NCBI RefSeq assembly: GCF_014196305.1
Contig: NZ_JACIDJ010000007.1
Location: 112,965 to 176,964 of the forward strand
Reading direction: 5' to 3'
Source: Roseococcus suduntuyensis
GTDB taxonomy: Bacteria > Pseudomonadota > Alphaproteobacteria > Acetobacterales > Acetobacteraceae
Length of the DNA: 64,000 bases
Under the pieces are notes generated by a model. That model saw only the letters and a list, made by a program, of their open reading frames with translations. It had not been told where the DNA came from and searched no databases. Both the position numbers and the translations under genes were made by a program. The stretch's first letter is position 1. Each line of letters begins with the position of its first letter. Of the stretch, positions 39,243 through 62,216 are shown one piece after another.

Positions 39243-40313
39243 ATGAAAATCATCCTCTTCGGTGCGGCATTGCTGGCTGGGGGTGCGCTGCTGCCATACC
39301 CCGGCGCTGCCCAGCCGGCCTGTGAGCACCGCGGGGCGCTGGACGACGGCTATTGTGACGCGAACCGCGACATGGTCGCCGACGCCCCGACCGACCCCGC
39401 GCGGTTGCGCAATCCCTCCACCCTCGTCTTCGCCTATACCCCGGTGGAGGACCCCGCGCTCTATGCCAGCCAGTTCCGCCCGTTGCTGGAACACCTGACG
39501 CAATGCACCGGCCGCCGCACGGTCTATTTCCAGGTGACGTCGAACGCCGCGCAGGTGGAGGCCATGCGCTCGGGCCGTCTGCACATCGCGGGCTTCTCTA
39601 CCGGCCCCACCGCCTTCGCGGTGAACCTGGCCGGTGCCGTGCCCTTCGCGCTCAAGGGCAATGCGGAGGGTTTCGAGGCGTATCGCGTGGTGGTGCTGAC
39701 GCGGGCGGATTCCAACATCCGCACCATGGCCGATCTGCGCGGGAGGCGGGTGGCGCACACCTCGGCCACATCCAATTCGGGCAACCTCGCCCCCCGCGCC
39801 TTCTTCCCCGGCCTGGGCGTGACGCCGGACACCGACTACCGCGTGGTCTATTCGGGTGGGCATGACCGCAGCGTGATGGGCGTGAACTCGGGCGATTTCG
39901 ACGCCGCGCCGGTGGCGTCGGACGTGTTCAACCGCATGGTCGCGCGCGGCCAGGTGCGGGCGGAGAATTTTCGCACCATCTGGCAGTCGGACCCCTTCCC
40001 GACCAGCAGCTTCGCGCTCGCGCACGACCTGCAGCCCGAACTGGCCCAGCGCATCCGGCAATGCTTCCTGGACTATCGCTTCCCGCCGGCGCTGGTGCGC
40101 GACCTGGGCGGCAATGACCGCTTCTGGCCCGCCACCTACCTGGAGCACTGGGCGCCCGTGCGCGCGGTGGCCGATGCGGTGAACGCCCCCTACACCCGCA
40201 GCGCCTTCGACGCCGAAAGCCGCCGCGAACTGGAGGCCGAGGCCCGCCGCCGCGCCGCCCGCGAACAGCAGCAACAGCAGGCCCCGGCCGCGACGCCGCC
40301 CCGCACCCAATGA
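39243..40313 (+). CDS. Phosphate/phosphite/phosphonate-type ABC binding protein (PhnD-like)
   Basis: 356 aa. The signal peptide is [22 protein letters not shown]. The PhnD fold shows [80 protein letters not shown] and [25 protein letters not shown]. Early Cys residues and an Asp-rich segment precede the core. The C-terminus is low-complexity ([14 protein letters not shown]). It supplies the importer encoded by the three following genes; its stop overlaps the next start (ATGA). Confidence 0.88.
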
Positions 40314-41065
40314 GCGGCGGCCTCTCCATCCGGGGCCTGAGCAAGGCCTATGTCCCGGGCAAGCCGGTGCTGCGCGACATCAACCTGGACTTCGACGGCC
40401 AGGGGGTGACGGCCATCATCGGGCCCTCGGGCACGGGCAAGTCCACGCTCATCCGCTGCATCAACCGCCTGGTGGAGCCGACGAGCGGCAAGGTCCTGCT
40501 GGATGGGCAGGACCTGGTGCCGCTGCGCGGGCGCGCGCTGCGCCTCGCGCGGCGGCGGATCGGCATGGTGTTCCAGGAGTACAACCTCGTGGAACGCCTG
40601 GCGGTGATGGAGAACCTTCTCTCGGGCCGCCTCGGCTATGTGCCGCTCTGGCGCGCCTGGCTGCGGCGCTACCCGCAGGAGGACATCGACCGCGCCTTCG
40701 CCCTGCTGGACGCGGTGGGCCTGCCCGAGCACGCGACGCGCCGGGCCGACGCACTCTCGGGCGGGCAGCGGCAGCGCGTGGGCATCGCGCGCGCACTGAT
40801 GCAGCGCCCCGCCTTGCTGCTGGCCGATGAGCCCACCTCCTCGCTCGATCCGCGCACCGCGGTCGAGGTGATGGAGTTGCTGACGCGCCTGGCCGGCGAG
40901 CAGGACGTGCCCGTCATCGTGAACATCCACAATGTGGAGCTGGCGAAGCGCTATTGCGGCCGCATCATCGGCATGCACCAGGGCAGCATCGTCTTCGACG
41001 GCCCGCCGGAAAAGCTGATGCCCGAGCACCTGACGCTGATCTATGGCGGCGAGGACTGGATGTGA
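40310..41065 (+). CDS. phnC: PhnC-type ABC transporter ATPase
   Basis: 251 aa. Walker A is [23 protein letters not shown], the Q-loop is in [24 protein letters not shown], the signature is [19 protein letters not shown] and Walker B is [18 protein letters not shown]...NVLSGRLG-like text is specific to phosphonate/phosphite importers. It couples ATP hydrolysis to uptake with the two PhnE-like permeases. Start and stop overlap both neighbours by 4 nt. Confidence 0.92.
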
Positions 41066-49270: not shown

Positions 49271-50476
49271 ATGTCCCAAGCCGGCCTTCCGCCCCAGCCA
49301 CGCCTGCCCGGAGCCCTCCGGCGGCAGGCGGTGCCCCTGCTGGCGTTCGCGCTGGCAATGCTGGCGGCGGGCTGCAACGAGGCGCCCTCGCGGGCCACCG
49401 CCGCGCAACCCGCCACGCCGCCGCCCGTCGCCGTCACGGTGATGACGCTGCGGCGCGCGGAAGTGCCTGTCACCACGCTGCTGCCCGGCCGGACGGCACC
49501 GCTGCGGGTCGCGGAGGTGCGGCCCCAGGTGGGCGGGCTGCTGCAACAGCGCCTGTTCACCGAGGGCGAGCAGGTGGCGGCGGGCCAGCCCCTGTTTCAG
49601 ATCGCCGCCGCCCCCTTCGAGGCCGCGGTGCAGCGCGCCGAGGCCGCGCTGGCCCGCGCCGAGGCGGCGGAGCGCGCGGCCACCGGCACCGCCAACCGCT
49701 ACCGCACCCTGGCCCGCGCCCAGGCGGTGAGCGAGCAGAACCTGGAGAATGCCGAGGCCACGCTGCGCCAGACCCGCGCCGATGTGGCCTCCGCCCGCGC
49801 CGCCCTGGAAACGGCGCGGATCGACCTCGGCTATACCGAGGTGAAGTCGCCCATCGCCGGGCGCACGGGCCGCGCCAACGTGACCGTGGGCGCCCTGGTG
49901 ACGGGCAGCCAGGCCGCGCCGCTGGTCACCGTGGCGCAGTTCGACCCCATCTATGTGGACCTGACCCAGCCCAGTGCGCGGCTGCTGCAACAGCGCCGCG
50001 ACGTGGAGAGCGGGGCGCTGCGCCGCGACTCCGCCGACCGCGCGGTGGTGCGGCTGCTGCTGGAGGATGGCTCCGAATACCCGCATGCGGGCGAGGTGCA
50101 GTTCTCCGAGGTCATCGTGGACCAGGGCACCGGCTCGGTCACGCTGCGCGCCATCTTCCCCAACCCGGACCAGATGCTGCTGCCCGGCATGTTCGTGCGC
50201 GCCCGCGTCGAGGAGGGCATCACCGACCAGGCCCTGCTGGTGCCGCAGCGCGCGGTGCTGCGCACGCCGCGCGGCGAGCCCATGGCCTTCGTGGTGAATG
50301 GCGAGGGTGTGGTGGAACAGCGCGTGCTGCGCGCCAGCCGCGCGGTGGGCAATGACTGGCTGGTGACCAGCGGGCTCAACCCCGGCGACCGCGTGGTGCT
50401 GGAGGGGCTGCAACGCATCCGCGCCGGCGCGCGCGTGCAGCCCACCGAAGGCCCCCTCGCGGCGGTCGGGGGCTGA
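49271..50476 (+). CDS. RND efflux periplasmic adaptor (AcrA/MexA type)
   Basis: 401 aa. A signal with lipobox-like LAAGC ([15 protein letters not shown]) suggests a lipid-anchored adaptor. The barrel-sandwich and hairpin regions show [44 protein letters not shown], a coiled hairpin of about 90 residues, then [24 protein letters not shown]. It links the inner-membrane pump to an outer-membrane channel. No TolC-like gene follows. Confidence 0.92.
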
Positions 50477-50480
50477 GGGG

Positions 50481-53400
50481 GTGGCGCGCTTCTTCATAGA
50501 CCGGCCCGTGTTCGCCTGGGTCATCGCCATCGGCATCATGCTCGCGGGGCTGCTCGCGCTCAGGAACATGGCGGTGGCGCAGTATCCGGCCATCGCGCCG
50601 CCGGCCATCACCATCAATGTGAGCTATCCCGGTGCCTCCGCCGAGACGGTGCAGACCACCGTGGTCCAGGTGATCGAGCAGCAGCTCAGCGGCATCGACA
50701 ACCTGCTCTACTTCGCCTCCCAGGCCAGCAAGGACGGTTCGGCGCAGATCCAGCTGACCTTCGCGCCAGGCACCAATGCGGACACGGCGCAGGTGCAGGT
50801 GCAGAACCGCGTCCAGCTCGCCTCGCCGCGCCTGCCGCTGACGGTGCAGCAGCAGGGCATCCGCGTCGTGAAGTCCTCGGGGAACTTCCTCCTGATCGTG
50901 GGCTTCGTCTCGACCGACGGGCGCATGCAGCGCACCGACATCTCGGACTTCCTGGTGGCCAATGTGCAGGACGCCATCAGCCGCACGCCGGGCGTGGGCG
51001 ACTACCAGGTGTTTGGCGCGCAATTCGCCATGCGGATCTGGCTCGACCCCGCGCGGCTCGTGAACTACGGCATGACGCCGGCCGATGTGGCGGCTGCGGT
51101 GCGCGCGCAGAACGTGCAGGTCTCGGGCGGCGAGATGGGCGCCCTGCCCGCCGTGCCCGGCCAGCAGCTGAATGCCACCGTCATCGGCCCCTCCTACCTG
51201 CAGACCGTGGAGGAGTTCGGCGCCATCCTGCTGCGCGTGCGCCCCGATGGCGCGCAGGTGCGGCTGCGCGATGTGGCGCGGGTCGAGATCGGCAGCGAGA
51301 ACTACAATTTCAGCACCCTGCTGGACGGGCGGCCGGCCAGCGGCATCGGCATTCGGCTGGCCACCGGCGCCAATGCCCTCGATGCCGCGGCGGCCGTGCG
51401 CGCCACCGTGGACCGCCTGCGCCCCAGCATCCCGCAGGGGCTGGAGGTGGTCTACCTCCAGGACACGACGCCCTTCGTCCAGCGCTCCATCACCAGCGTG
51501 GTCATGACGCTGATCGAGGCCGTGGTGCTGGTCTTCCTGGTGATGTACCTGTTCCTGCAGAATTTCCGCGCCACCATCATCCCCACCATGGCCATCCCGG
51601 TGGTGCTGCTGGGGACCTTCGCGGTGCTGGACGTGCTGGGCTTCAGCATCAACACGCTCACCATGTTCGGCCTGGTGCTCGCCATCGGGCTGCTGGTGGA
51701 TGACGCCATCGTGGTGGTCGAGAATGTCGAGCGCGTGATGGCGGAGGAACACCTGCCCCCGCTGGAGGCCACGCGCCGCTCCATGGACCAGATCACGGGC
51801 GCGCTGATCGGCATCGGCCTGGTGCTGTCGGCGGTGTTCCTGCCCATGGCCTTCTTCGGCGGGTCGGTGGGCGTGATCTACCGGCAGTTCTCCGTCACCA
51901 TCGCCACCGCCATGTCGCTCTCTGTGCTGGTGGCCATCTTCTTCACGCCCGTGCTCTGCGTGGGGCTGCTGAAGCCGCACAAGCCGGGCCAGGGCACGCG
52001 CGGCGTCTGGGGCTGGTTCAACCGCGGCTTCGACCGCATGACGCGCGGCTATGTGGGCGGTGTAAGCGCGAGCCTGAAGCGCCCAGCGCGCATGCTGCTG
52101 ATCTACGCGGTGCTGCTGGGCGCGCTTGGCTACGCCTTCCTGCGGATGCCCGGCGGCTTCCTGCCCAATGAGGACCAGGGCATCGCCTTCGCGCAGGTCA
52201 TCGCCCCCTCGGGCGCCACCACCGACCGCACCCAGCGCGCGCTGGACGAACTCGGCCGCTACCTCCGCGAGGAAGAGAGCGGCGTGGTGGACAGCTTCTT
52301 CGGCATCAACGGCTTCAGCTACAGCGGGCGCGGACAGAATTCCGGCCTCGGCTTCATCAGCCTGCGCGACTGGGATTCGCGCCCCGGCCCACAGAACAGC
52401 GTGCAGGCGCTGACCGCGCGCATCAATGCCCGCTTCGCCACCTACCAGGACGCCATCATCGTCTCCTCCGCCCCGCCCGCGGTGCGGGAACTCGGCAATG
52501 CCCAGGGCTTCGCCTTCCAGCTGCTGGACCGTGGCGGCCAGGGACATGAGGCGCTGATGGCCGCGCGCGACCAGCTGCTGCGCCTGGCGGCCGCGAGCCC
52601 GGTGCTCTCCGGCGTCCGGGCCAACGGGCTGAACGACGAGGCGCAGTTCCGCATCGTGGTGGATTGGGAACGCGCCAGCGCGCTGGGCCTGTCCATCACG
52701 GAGGTGAACACCACGCTCTCCACCGCCTTCGGCGCCACCTATGTGAACGACTTCATGGACCGTGGGCGCATCAAGCGCGTCTACATGCAGGGACAGCCGG
52801 AATCGCGCATGGGGCCGGGTGATCTCGACCAATGGTTCGTGCGGAACGCGACAGGGCAGATGGTGCCCTTCTCCGCCTTCGGACGCAGCGAATGGGTTTA
52901 TGGCTCACCGCGACTGGAGCGCTTCAATGGCGTCGCCTCGCGCGAGATCCAGGGTATTCCCGCCCCAGGCTTCACCACGGGCGACGCCATGGCGGAGATG
53001 GAGCGGCTGATGGCCCAGCTGCCGCCAGGCTTCGGCTTCGACTGGACCGGCATCTCCTTCCAGGAACGGCAATCCGCCGGGCAGGCACCGGCGCTCTACG
53101 CGCTGTCGCTGCTGGTGGTGTTCCTCTGCCTCGCCGCCCTCTACGAAAGCTGGTCCATCCCGACGGCGGTGATCCTCGCGGTGCCGCTCGGCGTGCTGGG
53201 CGCGGTGCTGGCCACGCTGCTGACCGGCAAGTCGAACGACGTGTATTTCCAGGTGGGGCTGCTCGCCACCATCGGGCTGACGGCGAAGAACGCCATCCTG
53301 ATCGTGGAATTCGCGCGCGAGGGCTTCGACCGCGGACTCTCGCTTGCCGAGGCCGCGACCCAGGCCGCCCGGCAACGGCTGCGACCCATCATCATGACCT

Positions 53401-53624
53401 CGCTCGCCTTCAGCCTGGGCGTGGTGCCGCTGGCCATCGCCTCCGGCGCGGGTTCGGGCGCGCAGAACGCCATCGGCACCGGCGTCATCGGCGGGGTGAT
53501 CGCGGGGACTGTGCTGGCGGTGCTCTTCGTGCCGGTCTTCTTCGTGCTGGTGCTGCGCCTGTTCCGCGCGCGCACGCGGGCCGTGGGCGTCCAGGCACCG
53601 GCGCTTGGGGAAGCGCCGCATTGA
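50481..53624 (+). CDS. RND multidrug efflux pump (AcrB/MexB type)
   Basis: 1047 aa from a GTG ([41 protein letters not shown]), 4 bp after the adaptor stop. Family motifs include [16 protein letters not shown], the TM4 aspartate pair in [21 protein letters not shown], and a second-half [35 protein letters not shown]. It is a trimeric proton-driven exporter of drugs, dyes or solvents of the HAE1 group. Its stop overlaps the TetR gene start. Confidence 0.95.
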
Positions 53625-54289
53625 CGGAAGCCCTGTTGGCTTGCGCCCCGCCCACGGAACGCCGCAAGCCCGGCCGCCGACCGATGCCCGAGGCCGAGCG
53701 CCGCGACCTGGTGCGCGACGCCGCCGCGACCGTCTTTCTGCGCGACGGATACGCCGCCGCCAGCATGGAGGAGGTCGCGCGCCTCGCGGGTATGTCGAAG
53801 CGCACCCTCTATCGCACCTTCCCGTCCAAGGCGGATTTGTTCGAGGACACGATAGGCTCCGTCCTCGCCCCGCTGCGGATCGACAGCGCGCTGGAAGAGG
53901 GGCCCGAATTGGGGGCGGCGCTGGAGGCCATCCTGGAAGCCACGGGGCTACACCTCCTGGCGCAGCGCCAGACCGCGCTGTTCCGTCTGGTTATCGCCGA
54001 GGGGCCGCGCTGCCCGGAGTTGGCTGAGCGCTGGCACCGCGCCCTTGTCAGCCGCGGCGCCAGTTCGCTCGAACGCCGCCTGGCCACCGAGATGCAGACT
54101 GCCCGGCTGCGGCTGACGGATGCCCGCCTGGCCGCGCGCATGCTCTACGGCATGGCGCTGGGTGCGGCGCAGATCCGCCTGCTGCTGGGGGTGGCGCCAC
54201 CGCCCTGCGGGGTGGAATTGCGTGCCATGATCAAGGCCGCCGTTTCGGTCTTCCTGGATGGGGCGCGCGTGTCTCAGGCTCTGGACTGA
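53621..54289 (+). CDS. TetR-family repressor of the RND operon
   Basis: 222 aa from a TTG that overlaps the pump stop (TTGA); an ATG 21 codons on ([18 protein letters not shown]) is the alternative. The HTH is [33 protein letters not shown]. The C-terminal domain is of the AcrR type. As the third gene of the operon it probably senses pump substrates and binds the dyad at 49213-49229. Confidence 0.85.
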
Positions 54290-54758: not shown

Positions 54759-55145
54759 CTATCGGATGGGCACCGACGCCGCACTCCGCTGATCCAGCGT
54801 CCCGTCGCGCGGGATGGCCCCGTGGTTGGCCAGCATATACGCCGTGATGGCCCATTTCTGCTCATCGTTGAGCCGGTCGGGATCGTCGAAGGGCATCATC
54901 ATCTGGTTGTACTCGAACAGGCCCAGCGCGGTGCTGAACTTCGTGATCTGCGTGCGCTCGCCCCAGATGGGCGTCTGGAAACCGGCGCCGCGCCGCCCAT
55001 CCTCGCCATGACACATGGCGCAATTCTCGGCGTAGAGGCGCTGCCCCTCCGCGACCTGCGGCGAGAGCGAGGGTTGCCCGATGGCGGCGGTGGCGATGAG
55101 GGCGAGCCCGCCCAGGGCCGGCATCGCCAGCATGATGAAGCGCAT
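54759..55145 (-). CDS. c-type cytochrome, probable partner of the molybdoenzyme
   Basis: 128 aa. The start at 55145 gives MRFIMLAMPALGGLALIATAAIG, a signal or anchor. The single haem site is CAMCHG; the distal Met is probably in EYNQMMMPFDDP. It lies 65 bp after the sulfite-oxidase-like gene on the same strand, matching SorAB/SoxCD-like pairs where a small cytochrome c takes electrons from the Mo centre in the periplasm. Confidence 0.85.
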   Translation of the reverse strand: MRFIMLAMPALGGLALIATAAIGQPSLSPQVAEGQRLYAENCAMCHGEDGRRGAGFQTPIWGERTQITKFSTALGLFEYNQMMMPFDDPDRLNDEQKWAITAYMLANHGAIPRDGTLDQRSAASVPIR

Positions 55146-55210
55146 GAAGACATCCAACTGCTGTGAAAGGAAAGTGGCCGGCGGCGGAGGGCCGCCGCCG
55201 GCCGGCAGGG

Positions 55211-56575
55211 TCAGGCGACCTCGACGCGGAACTTCGGAATGGCCCAATTCGCCATGCCGAGCGTGTTCAGCGGCACGGTCTCAGGCTGCACGGTGCCCGC
55301 ATTGTCCGTGGTGCGCGTCTCGATGACATGCTGGCCCGCCGTCGCGTCCCAGGGCAGCGAGAAGCGCACCCAGGTGTATTTGCCGAGGTTGGGCTGGCGG
55401 ATTTCCGCGCGCTGCCACTGGCCGCCATCAATCCGCACATCCACTTGGCGCACCCCGTTCTGTGGCGCCCAGGCATAGCCCGTCAGCTCCTGCCGCCCGG
55501 CCGAAAGCCGCGGCACCTGGCCGCGCTGCAGCGGGTAGTTGGCCGGCACGGAGGGTGACTTCTCCAGCACCAGCGGCACGGTGATGAAGGATTTCGGCGG
55601 CATCCAGGTCACCATGGGGCCCTGGATGTCCTCGGCACCCACGCCGATGAACTCGTCCTCCTGGCTGAACTCCGGCCGCTGGTAGCTCGGGCCGATATAG
55701 ACTTCGCCGCGCGTGTTCAGGCGGCACCAGACGCGCCGGTCGGTGACGCGGATTTCGGTCAGCCACTTGATGGAGGCCGTCCCGCCCCAGCCCGGCACCA
55801 CCATGCGCACCGGCGCGCCATGGTCGGGGATCAGCGGGTTGCCGTTCATGGCGAAGCACACGCCCATGTCGTGCTGCTGTGCCACCACGTCGCTGTAGGG
55901 CATGGGTCGGCCCATGTCGTTGCCATCCACGCCCGACCAGAACAGCACCGTGCGCGCGCCGGGCTTGATGCCGACGCGGGCGAAGATCTCGCTCATCGGC
56001 ACGTATTGCCATTCGGCCTGGCCCACGGCGCCCAGCACCCAGTTGCCGCCCGCCACCTGCTGGCCCGTCAGCCCGTCCTGCTCCCAGAACAGGGTGCGGC
56101 CGTTGCCGTGGCATTCCATGGTGGCGATGATGGTGCGGCTGCGCATGCCGAGCAGGTCGTTGTAGGAAAGTTCCACCGGCCGCTCGACCGAGGTGCCGTG
56201 GATGCGGAGCTTCCAGTTCTCCTGCGCCAGCACGGGCCGCGTTTCGGCCGTCGGCGTCGGGTAGTGGTTGCGGACGTAGAACTCCTCGATCGGCGTCATG
56301 AAGGTCTTGTAGTCCCAGTAGTTCCCCGACCGCACCGTGGCGCCGATGTTCAGGACGCGGCTGTCATCCTTGATGATCGGCCGGCGCCGGGGTGCCGCGG
56401 GCGCCGTCTGGGCCGAGGCGGGAGAAGCGCCCGGCAGGGTCATCGCCGCGGCGCCGAAGGCGGCGGCGGAGACGAAGAGCGAACGGCGCTGCGTGTTGGT
56501 GCCATGGCGCAGCACCTCGGTGGCGAGCTTCTCCGCCTCCGCGCGCTGCCGCTGTTCCCGGGTTCCGTCGGACAT
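55211..56575 (-). CDS. Sulfite-oxidase-family molybdoenzyme (SoxC/SorA-like)
   Basis: 454 aa. The ATG at 56575 is preferred over one two codons upstream because GGAGG is then 8 nt away. A twin-arginine leader (NTQRRSLFVSAAAFG) indicates Tat export with cofactor. The Mo-pterin domain shows FYVRNHYPTP and the cysteine ligand in IIATMECHGNGRTLF, then GDRPMPY-like and NGNPLIPDHGAPVRMVVPGWGG. The C-terminal half is the Mo-co dimerisation domain. The most likely reaction is sulfite to sulfate, but the substrate is unproven. Its promoter carries a sigma-54 signature. Confidence 0.88.
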   Translation of the reverse strand: MSDGTREQRQRAEAEKLATEVLRHGTNTQRRSLFVSAAAFGAAAMTLPGASPASAQTAPAAPRRRPIIKDDSRVLNIGATVRSGNYWDYKTFMTPIEEFYVRNHYPTPTAETRPVLAQENWKLRIHGTSVERPVELSYNDLLGMRSRTIIATMECHGNGRTLFWEQDGLTGQQVAGGNWVLGAVGQAEWQYVPMSEIFARVGIKPGARTVLFWSGVDGNDMGRPMPYSDVVAQQHDMGVCFAMNGNPLIPDHGAPVRMVVPGWGGTASIKWLTEIRVTDRRVWCRLNTRGEVYIGPSYQRPEFSQEDEFIGVGAEDIQGPMVTWMPPKSFITVPLVLEKSPSVPANYPLQRGQVPRLSAGRQELTGYAWAPQNGVRQVDVRIDGGQWQRAEIRQPNLGKYTWVRFSLPWDATAGQHVIETRTTDNAGTVQPETVPLNTLGMANWAIPKFRVEVA

Positions 56576-56626: not shown

Positions 56627-56642
56627 TGCAAGGCGGGTGCCA
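56627..56642 (-). promoter_or_regulatory. Sigma-54 (-24/-12) promoter of the molybdoenzyme operon
   Basis: On the minus strand TGGCAC-N5-TTGCA matches the RpoN consensus exactly, with -24 TGGCAC at 56642-56637 and -12 TTGCA at 56631-56627. It is 52 bp before the start codon at 56575. The regulator encoded just upstream has a sigma-54 activator domain. Confidence 0.8.
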
Positions 56643-56702
56643 GGGCGCAGAGCTTGCCGTAATCCCACAAATCTCTGAAATTACTAACTTATCCTCTGGC
56701 GC

Positions 56703-56721
56703 CAGTCCAGCTTTCCGGACT
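56703..56721 (-). promoter_or_regulatory. Upstream activator site 2 (candidate)
   Basis: On the minus strand AGTCCGGAAAGCTGGACTG, a 19-bp dyad with AGTCC and GGACT arms. It matches the second site at 56734-56752 in form. Its centre is about 75 bp upstream of the -24/-12 element. Confidence 0.6.
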
Positions 56722-56733
56722 CGCTGTCACCGG

Positions 56734-56752
56734 CTGTCCGGCCGGCCGGACT
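56734..56752 (-). promoter_or_regulatory. Upstream activator site 1 (candidate)
   Basis: On the minus strand AGTCCGGCCGGCCGGACAG; its inner 16 bp are a perfect palindrome. Centre-to-centre spacing to the other site is 31 bp, about three helical turns, as expected for paired sites of an NtrC-type activator. Confidence 0.6.
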
Positions 56753-56754
56753 GC

Positions 56755-58101
56755 TCAACCCTCGCCGCGCAGCCCGAGCCGGCGAAGCTTCTCGAAGAGG
56801 GTGGAGCGCGAAACCTTCAACGCCTCCGCCGCGCGGGCCACATCACCTCCCGCAGCGGCAAGGGCGGCGGTGATCGCCCGCCGCTCGGCCGCGTCGCGCG
56901 CATCGGCCAGGCTGGACAGGGCGGCTTCCGTTCGCGGGGGCGCTCTTTCGGGAAAAAGGTCGGCTGCCGTGACCAGCTCGCCCTCGGCCAGGGCGGCGGC
57001 GCGCTCCACCCGGTTGCGCAGTTCCCGCACATTGCCCGGATGGTCGTGCGCCAGCAGCGCCTCCTCGGCCAGGGAGGTGAAGCCGCGCAGGGGGCGGGCG
57101 AAGCTGGCCGCGAATTCACCCAGGAAGCGGCGCGCCAGCGGCAGCACATCCTCCGGGCGGTCGCGCAGGGGCGGCATCGCCACGCGGATCACGGCCAGGC
57201 GAAAGAAGAGGTCCTCGCGGAACCGGCCCTCGGCCACCTGAGCGTCCAGATCGGCATTGGTCGCGGCCACGATGCGGGCGCGGAAGGGCAGGTCGCGCTC
57301 GCCGCCCAGGCGGCGGAACACGCGCTCCTGCAGCAGGCGCAGCAGCTTGGCCTGGAGCGGCGGCGAAAGCTCCGCCACCTCGTCGAGGAAGAGCGTCCCG
57401 GCCCCGGCCTGCTCCGCCAAGCCCGCATGGCGGGACGTGGCATGGGTAAAGGCGCCGCGCTCATGGCCGAAGATTTCGCTCTCCAGCAATTCGGCCGGCA
57501 GGGCGGCGCAATTGGTCGCAACGAAGGGCAGCCGGGCGCGCGGGCCTTCGGCGTGCAGCAGCCGCGCGGCCACCTCCTTGCCCGAGCCGCTGGGGCCGGT
57601 CAGCAGCACGGTGGAGTCGATGCTGGCCACCCGGCGCAGCACGCGCTCGACCGACTGGATCGCGGGCGCCTCGCCCAGGGCGAAGCCCTCGCTGCGCTGC
57701 CAGCGGGGCGCGATCAGCGCCTCCAGCCGGCGCAGCAGCGCCTCGATGTCGAAGGGCTTTGTCAGGTAGTCGGCGGCGCCCGCCTGCATGAGCCGCACCG
57801 CCTGGGCGATATCCCCATGGCCTGTCACGAAGAGCATGGGCGCGTCGCCGCCCGCCTGGACGAGGGCGCGGTGCACCTCCTCGCCATTCATGTCGGGCAG
57901 GCGGATGTCGCAGATGATGGCGTCCGGCGCCTGGCGCGAGAGGGCGCGGATGGCCTCGGCGCCGTTGCGGAACCAGCTGGTGCGATAGCCCTCCACGGCC
58001 AGCCAATCGGCGACGGACTGGCCCATGACGGGGTCGTCCTCGATCAGCGCCACCAGGGGCGCCACCTCAGGCGGCGAGGCGGGGAGTGCCACGTTCGGCA
58101 T
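56755..58101 (-). CDS. NtrC-type sigma-54-dependent response regulator (AioR-like)
   Basis: 448 aa. Receiver residues 14-130 carry the acidic pocket (ALIEDD), the phospho-Asp in IICDIRLPDMNGEEV and the Lys in DYLTKPFD. The AAA+ domain has Walker A LTGPSGSGKEVAARLLH, Walker B AGTLFLDEVAEL, and the sigma-54 loop reads GAFTHA instead of GAFTGA. The Fis-type HTH (DVARAAEALKVSRSTLFEKLRRLG) ends the protein. It overlaps the kinase gene by 35 bp and lies directly upstream of the sigma-54 promoter. Confidence 0.92.
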   Translation of the reverse strand: MPNVALPASPPEVAPLVALIEDDPVMGQSVADWLAVEGYRTSWFRNGAEAIRALSRQAPDAIICDIRLPDMNGEEVHRALVQAGGDAPMLFVTGHGDIAQAVRLMQAGAADYLTKPFDIEALLRRLEALIAPRWQRSEGFALGEAPAIQSVERVLRRVASIDSTVLLTGPSGSGKEVAARLLHAEGPRARLPFVATNCAALPAELLESEIFGHERGAFTHATSRHAGLAEQAGAGTLFLDEVAELSPPLQAKLLRLLQERVFRRLGGERDLPFRARIVAATNADLDAQVAEGRFREDLFFRLAVIRVAMPPLRDRPEDVLPLARRFLGEFAASFARPLRGFTSLAEEALLAHDHPGNVRELRNRVERAAALAEGELVTAADLFPERAPPRTEAALSSLADARDAAERRAITAALAAAGGDVARAAEALKVSRSTLFEKLRRLGLRGEG

Positions 58102-59497
58102 CGTGAATCCGGATGATGATGCGGGAGCCGGGCGGGCCCGCGATTTTCACACGTGCGCCCAATTCGCGCACAAGCCGCGCCACGGTCCAGAGGCCGAGGC
58201 CGCCCGCCTGGGGAACCTGCGCCGCCTGGCCGTCCAGCAGCAGCGCGCAGGCCTCGGCGGGCAAGCCGGGCCCCTCGTCCGCGACCTCCAGCGTCAGCGC
58301 GCCGGCCGCCACCGCGGCGCGCAGGGTGACGCGCCCGCCCGGGGGCGATGCGGCGCAGGCGTTCAGCAGCAGGTTCAGAGCCACCTGGCGCACCATCTGC
58401 GCGGGGGCGGGAAAGCCGCCATCCATCTCATGCCGCCAGTCGAGCACCAGCTCACGCCGCCGCGCCTCGCTTTCGATCAGCAGGCGCAAATCGTCGATGT
58501 CGGCGGCGGAGACGGGCCGCGCATCGGCCTCGCCGCGCCAGAGGATGAGCGAGGCGCGGACCACGTTGTGGATGCCGGTGAGGCCCCGTTCCAGCAGCGA
58601 GGCCGCGCGCTGCCGCCGCTGCGGGTCGTCGCCATGACGCTGGATCATCCGCACGGCGTTGAACAGGCCGCCCAGGGGGTTGTTCACCTCATGCGCCATG
58701 GCCGAGGCGTAGCGGCCCACCAGTGCGCGGCGCTCCTCCTCGGCGAGGCGGGTGAGCAGGGCCTCGCGCTCCGCGATGGCGGCGGCGGCGGCGTTGTAGC
58801 GGCGATAGGCGCGGCCCTCCTCCGTGTCTGCAGGGGGCATGTCGGCCTCGGCGATGGGCTGAAGGCGCCCTTCCGCCGCCTGGCCGAGGCGCTCGGACAG
58901 GCGCAGCACCGGGTGCAGCATGCGCCGCACCAGCAGCCAGCCCAGCAGGGCAAAGAGCAGCGTCAGCGCGGCGTTGACGCCCACCAGGGCCAGCAGCGTG
59001 GCCCGGCGTTCGGTGGCGAGGGACGTGACATCCACCTCGGCCGCGATGCGGCCCACGGCAACGCCGCCCTCGCTCACCGCGCGATGGATCCAGGCGGTGG
59101 CGGCGCTGGGTTCGAGGTGAAGGGGCGCGGGCTCCGCTTCGGGCGGCGCGGCCGCGCCGAGCGGATGGCGGAGCGGGTCAGAGGCCGCCAGCACGCTGCC
59201 ATCCGGCAGCACCACCAGCACAAGCAGCGCCCCCACTGCCTGGTAGCGCGGGCGCGAACGGTCGAGCGCGTCGAAGGCCTCCCACGCGTCGCGCCGGATC
59301 ATGGCGGGCAGCAGCGCGGTGGAGAGACCGTCGAGATAGGCGTCGCTCAGCTCCTCGAAATGGGTGGCCTGCACGGCTTCCAGCCGCACCAGCACAAGCT
59401 TCGAGATGGCACCGGCCACCCCCACCATCAGCAGCGTGATCAGGAGCGGCACGCGCAGCGCGAGCGGCCAGCGGCGCGGGGCCAGCGCGCGCATCAC
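58067..59497 (-). CDS. Membrane sensor histidine kinase (AioS-like)
   Basis: 476 aa. A transmembrane helix (residues 14-36) and a second (about 170-192, LLALVGVNAALTLLFALLGWLLV) enclose a periplasmic domain; a HAMP-like linker follows. The phospho-acceptor is in SAMAHEVNNPLGGLFNAV; the ATPase domain has N-box LLLNACAASPPGG and G-boxes DEGPGLP and GGLGLWTVARLV. It pairs with the regulator gene that it overlaps. Its start overlaps the stop of the periplasmic binding-protein gene (ATGA), making a three-component set. Confidence 0.9.
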   Translation of the reverse strand: MMRALAPRRWPLALRVPLLITLLMVGVAGAISKLVLVRLEAVQATHFEELSDAYLDGLSTALLPAMIRRDAWEAFDALDRSRPRYQAVGALLVLVVLPDGSVLAASDPLRHPLGAAAPPEAEPAPLHLEPSAATAWIHRAVSEGGVAVGRIAAEVDVTSLATERRATLLALVGVNAALTLLFALLGWLLVRRMLHPVLRLSERLGQAAEGRLQPIAEADMPPADTEEGRAYRRYNAAAAAIAEREALLTRLAEEERRALVGRYASAMAHEVNNPLGGLFNAVRMIQRHGDDPQRRQRAASLLERGLTGIHNVVRASLILWRGEADARPVSAADIDDLRLLIESEARRRELVLDWRHEMDGGFPAPAQMVRQVALNLLLNACAASPPGGRVTLRAAVAAGALTLEVADEGPGLPAEACALLLDGQAAQVPQAGGLGLWTVARLVRELGARVKIAGPPGSRIIIRIHDAERGTPRLAA

Positions 59498-60366
59498 CCC
59501 GCGGCCCGTGCGCGGTGGCTCAAGGCCGCGATGCCGTCGAACAGGGCGGGCGAGCCCGGCACGAAGCCGTCGAGGCGCAAGGTGGCCAGGATGGCGCGCC
59601 CGTCTTCCGTGCCGGGCATGGTGAGAAGGGCGTGGCGGAGCGTCTCGCGCAGCGCCGGGTCCGCCCCGCGCGCGGTGGCGAAGGGAGGGAAGCCCATGGG
59701 GTCCGAGGCATGGACGATGCGCGTGGCGCCGACCAGCGCGGGCTCCAGCTCCGCCATCACATCCCAGACATAGCCATCCACTGAGCCCGATTGCGCGAGC
59801 CCTGCCGCGACGGCGCGAATGACGTTGCGGTGGCCATGGGTGAAGAGGCTGCGCGCGAAGAAGGCGCCGGGCGTCGTGCCCGCATCTGCCAGCATCGCGC
59901 TGGTGACGAGGAAGCCTGAATTGCTGTCAGGGTCGGAGAAGGCGTGGATGTCGCCGCGCAACTCGGCCAGCGTGGCGGCCGCGCGGTTGGCCCTTGTGAT
60001 GACATAGGAGCGGTAGAGCGGCGCGCCGCGATAGAGCGGCACGGCGAGGATGTCGAGCGCATCGCGGTGCTGGATGAAGGGGTAGCCGCAGATCCAGGCG
60101 GCATCGAGTTGACCCGCGACGAGCAGCGAGGTGACCTCGCGGTAGGTGCGGCGCTTGACCACTTGCACCGGCCGGCCGAGGCGCGCCGTGAGATGCCCCT
60201 CGATCTGGCGCACCAGCACGATGTCGGAGTCGAGGAAGACCGGCGTGAGCCCCAGCGTCACGATCGGCGTCGCCCGGGCCACTGGCGCGGCCAGCCCCGC
60301 GATGCCGAGCGCAAGCAGCGTGCGGCGCAATGGCTTCGGCGGAGCTTGGGGCCGCGCGGTGGGCAT
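59494..60366 (-). CDS. PhnD-like periplasmic binding protein of a three-component sensor (AioX-like)
   Basis: 290 aa. The ATG at 60366 begins a short leader with paired Arg (KPLRRTLLALGIAGLAAPVARA). PhnD-fold text: IVTLGLTPVFLDSDIVLVRQIEGHLTARLGRPVQVVKRRTYREVTSLLVAGQLDAAWICGYPFIQ. Cys93 in AWICGYP is the only cysteine; AioX arsenite sensors of this family also depend on a single Cys in this area. It is coupled to the kinase and regulator genes in the order X-S-R, without permease genes, so it is a sensor rather than a transporter subunit. The ligand is unknown. Confidence 0.85.
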   Translation of the reverse strand: MPTARPQAPPKPLRRTLLALGIAGLAAPVARATPIVTLGLTPVFLDSDIVLVRQIEGHLTARLGRPVQVVKRRTYREVTSLLVAGQLDAAWICGYPFIQHRDALDILAVPLYRGAPLYRSYVITRANRAAATLAELRGDIHAFSDPDSNSGFLVTSAMLADAGTTPGAFFARSLFTHGHRNVIRAVAAGLAQSGSVDGYVWDVMAELEPALVGATRIVHASDPMGFPPFATARGADPALRETLRHALLTMPGTEDGRAILATLRLDGFVPGSPALFDGIAALSHRARAAG

Positions 60367-60437: not shown

Positions 60438-60798
60438 TCAATTCGCAGCGAAAGCGCCGAGGGCGGCCATGGTGAAGGGCTTCCCCCGCCAGTTCACCGA
60501 CGAGGCCCTTCGGCCGTTCGTGCTCGCGCCGCAGGTTGGAGAAGTCCACCGACACCATCATCGGATAGATCATCCGCCAGATCAGCACCGCGACCAGGAA
60601 GTTGATCGAGCCCTATTCGAACCCGGCGAACACGCGGAAAGCCCCCGGGAACAGACTGCCCAGCGCGAAGCTCGCCGCAATGCACAGGACGATCCAGAGG
60701 GAGAGATAGCGTTCGAAGGAAGACACAACGGCCAGGAGGTCAGGATTGGCAGGCGATCCGTGGATGAACGACGCCTCTCCATGAGTGGGGTTCACCAT
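60438..60798 (-). pseudogene. acr3: Broken ACR3-type arsenite efflux gene
   Basis: From the ATG at 60798 the frame reads SSFERYLSLWIVLCIAASFALGSLFPGAFRVFAGFE and then meets an in-frame TAG. It resumes in the same frame with SINFLVAVLIWRMIYPMMVSVDFSNLRREHERPKGL. After a one-base shift it continues VNWRGKPFTMAALGAF before a stop at 60438. This is the N-terminal third of an Acr3 As(III) permease; the rest is missing. At least one nonsense mutation, one frameshift and a deletion separate it from a working gene. Confidence 0.85.
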
Positions 60799-60842
60799 GC
60801 CGCTTTCGGCCTGGTGAACCAAGGCCGCGCGAGGCGGCAGTT

Positions 60843-62159
60843 TCAGCCGCAGCAGCCGCGCGGCGCGGGGGCGGTCGTCGCACCGCATTCGCCACGGGCG
60901 GGCGCGCGGTCCGTGGCGCAGACGCCAGTCTCGGGCAACACCAGTTCCACGCGCCGGGCAGCGACGGTGTCGCCGGCCAGGTGGGCGGCGATGGAGCGGA
61001 CCTGCTCATGGCCCGTCGCCAGCAGGAAGGTGGGCGCGCGGCCATAGCTCTTCATGCCGGCGATGTAGAAGCCTGCCTCCGGGTGGCGCAGCTCGGCCTC
61101 GCCATGGGGGCGGACCGTGCCGCAGGAGTGCAGGTTGGGATCGATCAGCGGCGCCAGCGCCGGCGTGGCCTCCACCGCTGGGTCCAGCGCCAAGCGGATC
61201 TCGCGCAGGAACCCGAGGTCGGGGCGGAAGCCGGTGGCGACGATCATGCGGTCAGCGCGAATGGTCACCGCGCGCGCCTCCTGCCGGCCGGTGATGGCAA
61301 GCGCGCCATCGGCCTCATCGATCCGGTCGATGAGGAAGGGTGCCAGGGCGGTGACGGCCCCCTCTTCCACCAGCGCCTGTGCCCTTGCGCCGAGTGCGCC
61401 GCGCTGGGCCAGGCCGTCACGCGCGCCGCCACCAAAGTTGATGGCGCCCAGCGGGCGGCGAAAGGCCCAGAGGATGCGCGTACCGGCTGCGGTCTTGGCA
61501 AGCTCCGCCAGATCCAGCACCGCGTTCATCGCCGAATGCCCGGCGCCGACGACGAGGGTCTCCCGCCCGGCATAGGCGGCACGCGCCTCGCCGAGGATGT
61601 CGGGAATGCCATAGGTGATGCGCGCCGTGTGCTGGGTCTCGCCGGGGGTGGGCAGGCCGTGGCTACCAGCGGGGTTGGGCGTGTGCCAGGTGCCGGAGCA
61701 GTCGATCACGGCATGGGCCTCAATGGCCTCGATCCCTTGTTCCGTCTGGACGTGCAGGATGAAGGGCGTGGCGTCGCGCGCGGCTCCGTCGCGCAGGCGA
61801 CCGAAGTCACGCCGCGCGACGCCCACGACCTTCGCTCCGGTGCGAATGCGGCCGCGCAGCGCCGCCGTGGCGGAGAGAGGGAGAAGGTAGCGGGCCAGAA
61901 GTTCCTGGCCGGTCGGAAACTGCGCGGGGTCGGGGGAGGACCAGCCCTCGGCCTCTAGGAGCGCGCGGGCGGCGGCATCGGTGTTGAACCCCCAGGGCGA
62001 GAACATCCGGACATGGCCCCAGGCGCGAACAGCGTGCCCGACCTCGGGGCCCGCCTCCAGGACGACTGGCTTCAGGCCGCGCGCGAGAAGCTGGGCAGCC
62101 GCGGCGAGTCCGATGGGGCCGGCGCCGATGATCGCGATAGGCAAGGTGTGGGACTGCAT
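60843..62159 (-). CDS. arsO: ArsO-like flavin-dependent monooxygenase
   Basis: 438 aa. The start at 62159 has AAAGGA 7 nt upstream; a start 14 codons earlier would overlap a dyad. Two Rossmann folds: FAD site IAIIGAGPIGLAAAAQLLARGLK and NADPH site ETLVVGAGHSAMNAVLDLA, with IVATGFRPDLGF late. The extreme C-terminus is Cys-rich (GECG...RGCCG). It is close to the flavoproteins of ars operons (ArsO group). Neighbours support an arsenic role: a PadR regulator upstream and a broken acr3 gene 44 bp downstream. The reaction is not established. Confidence 0.75.
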   Translation of the reverse strand: MQSHTLPIAIIGAGPIGLAAAAQLLARGLKPVVLEAGPEVGHAVRAWGHVRMFSPWGFNTDAAARALLEAEGWSSPDPAQFPTGQELLARYLLPLSATAALRGRIRTGAKVVGVARRDFGRLRDGAARDATPFILHVQTEQGIEAIEAHAVIDCSGTWHTPNPAGSHGLPTPGETQHTARITYGIPDILGEARAAYAGRETLVVGAGHSAMNAVLDLAELAKTAAGTRILWAFRRPLGAINFGGGARDGLAQRGALGARAQALVEEGAVTALAPFLIDRIDEADGALAITGRQEARAVTIRADRMIVATGFRPDLGFLREIRLALDPAVEATPALAPLIDPNLHSCGTVRPHGEAELRHPEAGFYIAGMKSYGRAPTFLLATGHEQVRSIAAHLAGDTVAARRVELVLPETGVCATDRAPARGECGATTAPAPRGCCG

Positions 62160-62172
62160 GACATGATCCTTT

Positions 62173-62193
62173 ATGCATTGATCATCAATGTAT
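62173..62193. promoter_or_regulatory. Candidate PadR operator before the flavoprotein gene
   Basis: Read on the minus strand it is ATACAT-N9-ATGCAT; its inner 15 bp (CATTGAT-C-ATCAATG) are a perfect dyad. It lies 14 bp before the flavoprotein start and matches the dyad before the PadR gene. Confidence 0.6.
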
Positions 62194-62216
62194 TTCGACA
62201 AAAGGATGTCGCGTGG

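What the first reader, a model, noticed from the sequence alone, without database searches (positions are those of the whole stretch)
56627..56752. Complete RpoN control region: perfect -24/-12 element with two matching 19-bp dyads 31 bp apart
On the minus strand TGGCAC-N5-TTGCA stands 52 bp before the molybdoenzyme start. Upstream lie AGTCCGGAAAGCTGGACTG and AGTCCGGCCGGCCGGACAG, aligned base for base at both ends and separated by 31 bp centre to centre, so they face the same side of the helix. The gene immediately upstream encodes an NtrC-type activator. Such layouts are known for NtrC-like proteins; the sequences and this target appear specific to this locus.
Basis: partly seen in the sequence, partly recalled or inferred. 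Interest (0 to 1): 0.85.

Follow-up and report, generated by a model that had tools for sequence, protein, structure and literature searches.

The report
Arsenite-switch promoter driving sulfite-oxidase-like enzyme
In front of a sulfite-oxidase-like molybdenum enzyme lies the same pair of DNA sites that relatives carry in front of their arsenite oxidase, next to genes for a predicted arsenite sensor; the enzyme is therefore likely switched on by arsenite and predicted to be a new kind of arsenite oxidase.

Summary
Observation confirmed: TGGCAC-N5-TTGCA at 56627-56642 (minus), two matching dyads 31 bp apart, an NtrC-type regulator gene next door. "Specific to this locus" is not supported. The regulator triad is AioXSR-like, the known arsenite-sensing system: the binding protein's best solved relative is AioX, with all ten pocket and loop residues checked identical. 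The dyads share the 16-bp frame and core of the published AioR footprint (GTTCGGATTTCCGAAC). Dyad pairs 31-32 bp apart with GG-N10-GC occur at 12 of 12 related promoters, and dyad pairs 29-33 bp apart at 20 of 20 aioBA promoters read. What is new is the target: where relatives carry arsenite oxidase AioBA, these loci carry a sulfite-oxidase-fold (SUOX) enzyme with a twin-arginine signal, plus a cytochrome c. AioA is above cut-off in 0 of 9 SUOX genomes. The regulator tree needs at least two changes of enzyme. Three of 13 SUOX loci have recognised arsenic-gene neighbours (ArsJ with its GAPDH; an Acr3 remnant; ArsO-like genes). Best reading: an arsenite-induced, RpoN-dependent operon whose SUOX enzyme is a candidate third class of arsenite oxidase. 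The regulation is well supported by sequence; the substrate is inferred.

The parts
56627..56642 (-). -24/-12 (RpoN-type) element TGGCACCCGCCTTGCA
   Evidence: sequence; GG-N10-GC present in 12 of 12 XSR-SUOX promoters
56703..56721 (-). promoter-proximal operator; 16-bp core GTCCGGAAAGCTGGAC at 56705-56720
   Evidence: matches 11 of 12 positions of GTYCGG-N4-CCGRAC
56734..56752 (-). promoter-distal operator; 16-bp core GTCCGGCCGGCCGGAC at 56736-56751
   Evidence: 12 of 12 positions, perfect palindrome
55211..56575 (-). SUOX-fold molybdoenzyme with twin-arginine signal, start ATG 56575
   Evidence: Pfam Oxidored_molyb and Mo-co_dimer; best solved relative SorT 4pw3 E 1.2e-39; the two signal arginines are kept in 117 of 120 listed relatives
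54759..55145 (-). c-type cytochrome, likely electron acceptor; ATG 55145
   Evidence: Pfam Cytochrom_C and Cytochrome_CBB3 on 54759-55166; start; a relative follows SUOX in 12 of 13 SUOX loci, the contig ending in L118
56755..58101 (-). AioR-like sigma-54 response regulator
   Evidence: Pfam; groups with regulators of aioBA loci, 100/98 support
58067..59497 (-). AioS-like sensor histidine kinase
   Evidence: Pfam HATPase_c above and HisKA below its cut-off; 37-49% to kinases of aioXSR-aioBA loci
59494..60366 (-). AioX-like periplasmic binding protein (ATG 60366)
   Evidence: best solved match AioX 6esv E 2.2e-83; ten pocket and loop residues identical; start
60450..60726 (-). remnant of an Acr3-type arsenite efflux gene (N-terminal part only, broken)
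   Evidence: tblastn 50.7% over residues 1-75 and 62.5% over 81-96 of a 352-aa Acr3; in-frame stop; no Pfam match for the 91-aa ORF 60613-60888
60843..62201 (-). ArsO-like flavoprotein gene
   Evidence: NCBIfam ArsO only far below its cut-off, 46 of 425 bits; 49-58% to genes in aioBA islands L126, L157, L158
62217..62654 (-). PadR-family regulator gene
   Evidence: Pfam PadR; 64-67% to the PadR gene before ArsO-like genes in aioBA islands L157, L158

Best explanation
Two dyads of the AioR-operator form and a -24/-12 element stand before genes for a sulfite-oxidase-fold (SUOX) enzyme and a cytochrome c; this is likely an RpoN promoter that the adjacent AioX-AioS-AioR-like system would switch on when AioX binds arsenite, and the enzyme, which stands where relatives have AioBA, is predicted to oxidise periplasmic arsenite. 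Proposed order: the AioX-like protein binds As(III) in the periplasm (inferred); the kinase phosphorylates the regulator (inferred); regulator dimers bind the two operators on one face of the helix, about three turns apart (sites shown, binding inferred); the DNA loops over an AT-rich spacer and the activator opens the RpoN promoter (inferred); the enzyme is exported by the Tat route (signal motif seen, export inferred), oxidises As(III) to As(V) at Mo and hands electrons to the cytochrome c (inferred). My estimates: AioR-type RpoN control 0.9; As(III) as the inducer 0.8; As(III) as the main substrate 0.45. The figure below is for the whole chain.
For: Sensor: solved AioX is the best match (E 2.2e-83, against 4.3e-35 for ArrX and 1.3e-10 for PtxB). 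Tyr88, Cys106, Tyr131, Ser161, Ser163, His192, Asp210 and the Val-Phe-Leu loop are identical in 11 of 11 SUOX-linked proteins aligned; their role and As(III)-only binding are from PMC5908839 (passages). Operators: AioR protects GTTCGGATTTCCGAAC (PMC5335332, passages). Pairs of this 16-bp form 31-32 bp apart, with GG-N10-GC, occur in 12 of 12 XSR-SUOX promoters; shuffles reaching the score: 0 of 1000 in 11 and 1 of 1000 in L012. Pairs 29-33 bp apart occur in 20 of 20 aioBA promoters (search limited to 29-34 bp). The one SUOX locus without XSR (L121) has no such pair (496 of 1000 shuffles as good). Exchange: AioA is above cut-off in 0 of 9 SUOX genomes but in 8 of 9 class-level genomes with AioX and no SUOX beside it. 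Of 11 AioX genomes among 249 of the family, 7 have XSR-SUOX and 4 XSR-AioBA. The regulator tree forces at least 2 changes: L122-L124 (SUOX) group with L157-L160 (AioBA) at 99/96, and the other nine SUOX-linked regulators form a group at 100/99. Arsenic setting: L119 has an ArsR-ArsC-like fusion, ArsJ-associated GAPDH (541 bits, cut-off 450) and ArsJ (525, cut-off 400) just before XSR-SUOX. The window's PadR, ArsO-like, Acr3-remnant, XSR order matches PadR, ArsO-like, MFS transporter, XSR, AioBA in L157/L158. An intact Acr3 lies elsewhere in the genome. Active site: 119 of the 120 best-listed family proteins have CHGN at the Mo cysteine; SorT and SorA have CSGN, SoxC CAAN, own-genome paralogue L093 CGGN.
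Against: The closest solved relatives of the enzyme are sulfite or sulfane dehydrogenases and sulfite oxidases (SorT, SorA, SoxC, SO), and Arg102, aligned with active-site Arg78 of SorT, is kept in 120 of 120. No SUOX-family arsenite oxidase turned up in the searched literature. The family is large (579 proteins with E below 1e-3 among candidates scored); I saw the genome context of 13 loci only, one of which (L121) has no XSR. Ars neighbours were recognised in 3 of those 13 (WIN, its congener L117, L119), and in WIN and L117 they rest on an ArsO-like gene that scores far below the ArsO model and, in WIN, a broken Acr3 piece. Pocket residues do not prove specificity: ArrX has them and binds arsenate (PMC5908839). 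Single operators are not enriched in the genome (12 places against 19 for the reversed control). The GTCC form of half-site is not special to SUOX loci: by eye at least one GTCC-N8-GGAC site is present in 9 of 20 aioBA promoters. The AlphaFold model is weak (mean pLDDT 64), so the pocket was not modelled.
Confidence: 0.45

Rival explanations
1. Arsenite does switch the operon on through AioXSR-like control, but the SUOX enzyme works on something else that comes with arsenite stress: sulfite, thioarsenite, antimonite or an organoarsenical. The exchange with AioBA would then be regulatory convenience rather than the same reaction.
For: The closest solved SUOX relatives oxidise sulfite or sulfane sulfur, and the active-site Arg is kept. 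[quoted passage not shown]
Against: AioA is not above cut-off in any of 9 SUOX genomes; two regulator groups show the same exchange; ArsJ/GAPDH sits next door in L119; a family-specific His follows the Mo cysteine. The sulfite dehydrogenases studied in two alphaproteobacteria are induced by sulfite through ECF sigma factors (PMC6527743, abstract). The SUOX fold also includes nitrate reductase, so its substrates do vary.
Confidence: 0.35
2. The XSR copy has changed ligand (for example to sulfite or phosphite) and the locus is a sulfite-detoxification operon controlled by a re-purposed AioR.
For: PF12974 proteins bind varied oxyanions; PtxB and HtxB are distant relatives. Pocket residues alone do not fix specificity, and sulfite is not in the list of ligands tested on AioX (PMC5908839, passages).
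Against: Ten of ten pocket and loop residues are unchanged in 11 of 11 proteins; arsenic-type genes adjoin WIN, L117 and L119. I recognised no sulfur-oxidation genes beside the operon when reading ORF starts by eye, which was not a systematic annotation.
Confidence: 0.15
3. The dyads are chance or belong to an unrelated regulator, and the promoter is only a look-alike.
For: Single sites of this form are no more frequent in the genome than the reversed control (12 against 19 places).
Against: The pair, its spacing and GG-N10-GC are conserved at 12 of 12 orthologous promoters, with 0-1 of 1000 shuffles as good, and match a footprinted AioR site in length and core.
Confidence: 0.03

Closest known systems
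AioXSR / RpoN control of aioBA (Rhizobium NT-26, Agrobacterium GW4 and 5A)
   Same: Periplasmic AioX, kinase AioS, sigma-54 regulator AioR; -24/-12 promoter (NT-26 TGGCACAACGATTGCA); 16-bp operator GTTCGGATTTCCGAAC; cytochrome c gene in the NT-26 operon (passages).
   Different: Target is a SUOX-fold enzyme, not AioBA. Outer bases are GTCC...GGAC where the footprinted site has GTTC...GAAC (the published motif allows C in the left half only; 9 of 20 aioBA promoters here also have the GTCC form). Operators come as conserved pairs, whereas the GW4 aioBA fragment in PMC5335332 is described as holding one.
ArxXSR and ArrXSR modules
   Same: Same three-component regulators found with different arsenic molybdoenzymes (PMC5908839, passages).
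   Different: Aio, Arx and Arr are of the DMSO reductase family; here the enzyme is of the sulfite oxidase family. ArrX lacks the Val-Phe part of the loop that these proteins keep (same paper).
SorT/SorU and SorAB sulfite dehydrogenases
   Same: Same fold, Mo cysteine, active-site Arg, c-type cytochrome partner.
   Different: About 27% identity to SorT in the fold alignment; far below the SorT, SorA and SoxC model cut-offs (162 of 570, 141 of 600, 159 of 420 bits); CHGN in place of CSGN or CAAN; RpoN-type promoter instead of ECF sigma control.
TspS/TspR control of sox-II in Acidithiobacillus caldus
   Same: Sigma-54 two-component control of an oxidation operon; operator TGTCCCAAATGGGACA has the same GTCC/GGAC ends (PMC6335251, passages).
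   Different: The GTCC and GGAC ends are 2 bp closer together; no AioX-type sensor in the passages seen; target is Sox.

Membership tests
AioXSR three-component system | Periplasmic As(III)-binding protein of the AioX subfamily with Cys106 pocket and Val-Phe-Leu loop | tested here: met
   10 of 10 residues, best PDB hit AioX
AioXSR three-component system | Genes X-S-R contiguous, R with receiver, AAA+ and Fis HTH domains, grouping with AioR-type regulators | tested here: met
AioXSR three-component system | Specific As(III) binding and As(III)-dependent activation | not testable with these tools
   needs calorimetry and expression assays
AioXSR three-component system | Neighbouring target operon is aioBA | tested here: not met
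   target is SUOX plus cytochrome c; no AioA above cut-off in the genome
AioR operator | 16-bp dyad, GTT-N10-AAC / GTTCGG-N4-CCGAAC | tested here: inconclusive
   same length and CGG-N4-CCG core, but GTC...GAC in place of GTT...AAC; GTCC-N8-GGAC sites also occur at 9 of 20 aioBA promoters, counted by eye
RpoN (sigma-54) promoter | TGGCAC-N5-TTGCW, upstream activator sites, rpoN in the genome | tested here: met
RpoN (sigma-54) promoter | Transcript starts about 12 bp downstream and depends on rpoN | not testable with these tools
   needs RNA
Sulfite oxidase (SUOX) fold | Oxidored_molyb and Mo-co_dimer domains, Mo cysteine, fold match | tested here: met
   (model mean pLDDT 64)
SorT / SorA / SoxC sulfite dehydrogenases | Score above the curated equivalog cut-off | tested here: not met
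   134-162 bits against cut-offs of 420-600 for three family members
Arsenite oxidase AioBA | DMSO-reductase-family AioA with Rieske AioB | tested here: not met

The most novel reading that the evidence does not exclude
This is a third class of arsenite oxidase, the first built on the sulfite oxidase fold: a periplasmic Mo enzyme plus cytochrome c that has traded places with AioBA under the AioXSR arsenite switch at least twice, in bacteria with no recognisable AioA.
Probability: 0.4. Interest if true: 0.92.

Novelty: new variant of a known kind. Interest (0 to 1): 0.72.

Why it matters
The known arsenite oxidases Aio and Arx belong to one enzyme family, and one study reports As(III) oxidation in a strain with neither and infers an unknown enzyme (PMC6620896, passages). 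A SUOX enzyme wired to the arsenite sensor gives a concrete, testable candidate for such cases, would mean that aioA-based surveys miss some arsenite oxidisers, and would show that an oxygen-transfer enzyme of the sulfite type can be recruited for a metalloid of similar pyramidal shape. The paired operator also refines what an AioR promoter looks like.

Tried and rejected
Chance origin of the dyads: rejected. A TspR-like (sox) regulator: considered because of the similar operator, rejected because the triad is AioXSR-like. A phosphite or phosphonate sensor: considered from Pfam and NCBIfam, rejected on the AioX match. A wide regulon: single operators in the genome do not exceed the control (12 places against 19), so none is claimed. 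A second target at the Mrp antiporter operon: L163, L164 and L165 carry two dyads 21 bp apart plus a -24/-12 element, and L166 a pair 32 bp apart plus -24/-12; but L165 comes from genome G044, in which AioX was not found, and the six other Mrp loci (L167-L172) show neither, although their start codons were picked mechanically and some look too far upstream. Kept as an unexplained lead. The ORF picked for paralogue L092 was on the wrong strand and was not used. The structure model was too weak for the pocket; it only supports the fold.

Literature searches covered open-licence PubMed Central only. Seen of each paper: PMC6335251, PMC5908839, PMC6011840, PMC5335332, PMC7533571, PMC6620896, PMC3834237, PMC8453088 and PMC4760952: found passages; PMC6527743: abstract and outline; [quoted passage not shown] All other papers: search listing only.

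Full report
Observation. The pair is 31 bp apart and scores 23 of 24 against GTYCGG-N4-CCGRAC; 0 of 1000 dinucleotide shuffles reach that. It is the only such pair in the window, where 23 single sites reach 10 of 12. I wrote that consensus after seeing the first loci and the published AioR site, so it was fitted to the idea; the loci fetched later (L117-L134, L157-L160) are the fairer test.

What the neighbours are. On the minus strand the order is PadR regulator, ArsO-like flavoprotein, a broken Acr3 fragment, an AioX-like binding protein, a histidine kinase, a sigma-54 response regulator, the control region, a SUOX-fold molybdoenzyme with a twin-arginine signal motif, and a c-type cytochrome. 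The binding protein's best solved relative is AioX (6esv, E 2.2e-83), far ahead of ArrX (4.3e-35) and PtxB (1.3e-10). The seven pocket residues and three loop residues named in PMC5908839 (passages) are identical in the window protein and in the ten other SUOX-linked proteins aligned; L123 is missing there because its contig begins just before the regulator gene. That paper reports As(III) binding with a Kd of 177 nM and none for nine other oxyanions (sulfite is not in its list), and warns that ArrX has the same residues and binds arsenate.

The operator is of a known kind. DNase footprinting put AioR on GTTCGGATTTCCGAAC (PMC5335332, passages). The window's GTCCGGCCGGCCGGAC and GTCCGGAAAGCTGGAC have the same length, and the first has the same core, with T changed to C in each half. 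I compared 12 promoters of XSR-SUOX loci (window, L009-L012, L117-L120, L122-L124) and 20 of XSR-AioBA loci (L013-L017, L019-L022, L125, L126, L129-L133, L157-L160). All 12 have a pair at 31-32 bp and a GG-N10-GC element. All 20 have a pair at 29-33 bp (which searched 29-34 bp only). A -24/-12 match was found in 12 of 16 aioBA promoters by the first pattern and in 2 more (L013, L133) by a looser one; L130 and L131 gave none, and L157-L160 were not searched for it. Shuffles as good: 0 of 1000 in 11 SUOX promoters and 1 of 1000 in L012; 0 of 1000 in 18 aioBA promoters and 0 of 200 in L159 and L160. L121, which has the SUOX and cytochrome genes but no XSR, has no pair (496 of 1000 shuffles as good). 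The GTCC form is not a mark of SUOX loci: by eye, 9 of 20 aioBA promoters have at least one GTCC-N8-GGAC site. So tandem operators about three helical turns apart look like a general trait of AioR-type promoters, and the finding is one instance. The spacer between operators and promoter is AT-rich (50-75% in four 20-bp bins, against 15-40% in most bins around it), which could help looping.

What is new is the target. In the loci read, full XSR modules were accompanied by AioBA or by SUOX plus cytochrome c, never by both; in L019 AioBA is divergent and in L013 ars genes lie between. Exceptions: L018 shows another gene after the regulator on a short contig, L127 ends at a contig edge, L128 has part of a kinase and no regulator, and L134 (a 40% AioX relative with a changed loop) has neither enzyme in 20 kb. 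In a family sample of 249 genomes, SUOX at E up to 1e-90 is in 9 and AioX at E up to 1e-50 in 11. Seven have both, four have AioX with AioBA (G016, G239, G121, G245), one (G097) has SUOX and the regulator at a contig start, and one (G087, 84% complete) has SUOX without XSR. In a 398-genome phylum sample only the own genome has the SUOX gene; in a 385-genome class sample AioX is in 10, the own one included. AioA scores above its cut-off in 0 of 9 SUOX genomes and in 8 of the other 9 class-level AioX genomes (the exception is G962, of L134). The regulator tree (40 rows, six of them outgroup) needs at least two changes between SUOX- and AioBA-linked rows: L122-L124 sit with the AioBA-linked L157-L160 (99/96), while the other nine group together (100/99). 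Which way the changes went, or whether transfer is involved, is open; the point is that one switch has served both enzymes more than once.

Arsenic setting. L157 and L158 of the same family read PadR, ArsO-like, MFS transporter, XSR, AioBA; the transporter of L158 matches the ArsK model below cut-off (244 of 400). The window reads PadR, ArsO-like, Acr3 remnant, XSR, SUOX, cytochrome. The ArsO-like gene is itself far below the ArsO model (46 of 425 bits). L119 has an ArsR HTH fused to a phosphatase-type ArsC-like domain (ArsC models below cut-off), the ArsJ-associated GAPDH (541 bits, cut-off 450) and ArsJ (525, cut-off 400) directly before XSR-SUOX; ArsJ and its GAPDH act on arsenate (recalled), the product that an arsenite oxidase would make. 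L012 has phnC and phnD after the operon; phn genes are found in aio islands (PMC3834237, passages). In the other SUOX loci (L009-L011, L118, L120-L124) I recognised no ars gene in the stretch held, by tblastn with a small set of references and by eye; L118 and L123 are short contigs. An intact Acr3 lies elsewhere in the window's genome (386 bits, cut-off 283).

The enzyme. It is a SUOX-fold protein: Pfam, SorT as best solved relative by sequence and by predicted fold (model mean pLDDT only 64). It is far below the curated cut-offs for SorT, SorA and SoxC. Of the 120 best-listed family members (579 found), 119 have CHGN at the Mo cysteine and one has lost the Cys, while SorT and SorA have CSGN, SoxC CAAN and the own-genome paralogue L093 CGGN. 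Arg102, aligned with SorT Arg78, is kept in 120 of 120. A His beside the Mo ligand is a sensible place for a substrate change, but that is inference. In a small enzyme tree L122-L124 again stand apart from the rest, with the place of the beta-proteobacterial members unresolved. Sulfite dehydrogenases studied in two alphaproteobacteria are induced by sulfite through ECF sigma factors (PMC6527743, abstract), unlike this locus.

Mechanism and confidence. I commit to arsenite-induced, RpoN-dependent expression of a SUOX-type arsenite oxidase. The promoter and operators are shown as sequence; AioR-type control is strongly inferred (0.9); As(III) as signal is inferred from the pocket and neighbours (0.8); As(III) as substrate rests on exchange with AioBA, no recognisable AioA, neighbours in a few loci and the changed active-site motif (0.45). 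The main rival is an arsenite-induced enzyme with another substrate.

Novelty. The passages seen of PMC5908839 name XSR modules with Aio, Arx and Arr, which are of the DMSO reductase family. My searches for a SUOX-family arsenite oxidase or an XSR-SUOX locus (open-licence papers only) listed none that I could recognise from titles, abstracts and the passages read. A new variant of a known regulatory kind is well supported; a new class of arsenite oxidase is the bold reading. Roseomonas strains that oxidise antimonite, and a title on an antimony- and arsenite-oxidising Roseomonas, appear in PMC8453088 (passages), but I cannot tie them to this gene.

Noticed in passing
L163:1372-1488, and upstream of the mrpA-like gene in L164, L165, L166 (own genome C1:688364): An Mrp-type antiporter operon has AioR-like dyads (21 bp apart in three congeners, 32 bp apart in G095) and a -24/-12 element, yet AioX was not found in congener G044; six other Mrp loci showed neither. 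A paper on a Na+:H+ antiporter in arsenite oxidation was seen only as a reference entry.
   Followed up: partly
L121 (genome G087): The SUOX and cytochrome pair occurs without XSR, operators or recognised ars genes, so the pair can live outside the switch.
   Followed up: partly
L117:14466-15814: In the window's congener G175 the ArsO-like gene is matched in two pieces in different frames, so it looks broken there.
   Followed up: no
window 39669-41062: Another AioX-like match (30%) beside a PhnC-like ATPase (45%): a phosphonate-type transporter, as seen in arsenic islands, about 14 kb from the operon.
   Followed up: no
window 49271-54289: What looks like an RND-type efflux pair (401-aa and 1047-aa ORFs) followed by a TetR-like reading frame lies just downstream of the cytochrome gene on the other strand (read by eye).
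   Followed up: no
L134 (genome G962): A distant AioX-S-R set (AioX 40%, loop VVV in place of VFL) with neither AioBA nor SUOX beside it: possibly another ligand or target.
   Followed up: no
L128 and L129 (genome G264): Two copies of the AioX gene in one genome, one with part of a kinase and no regulator, one in a full XSR-AioBA locus.
   Followed up: no
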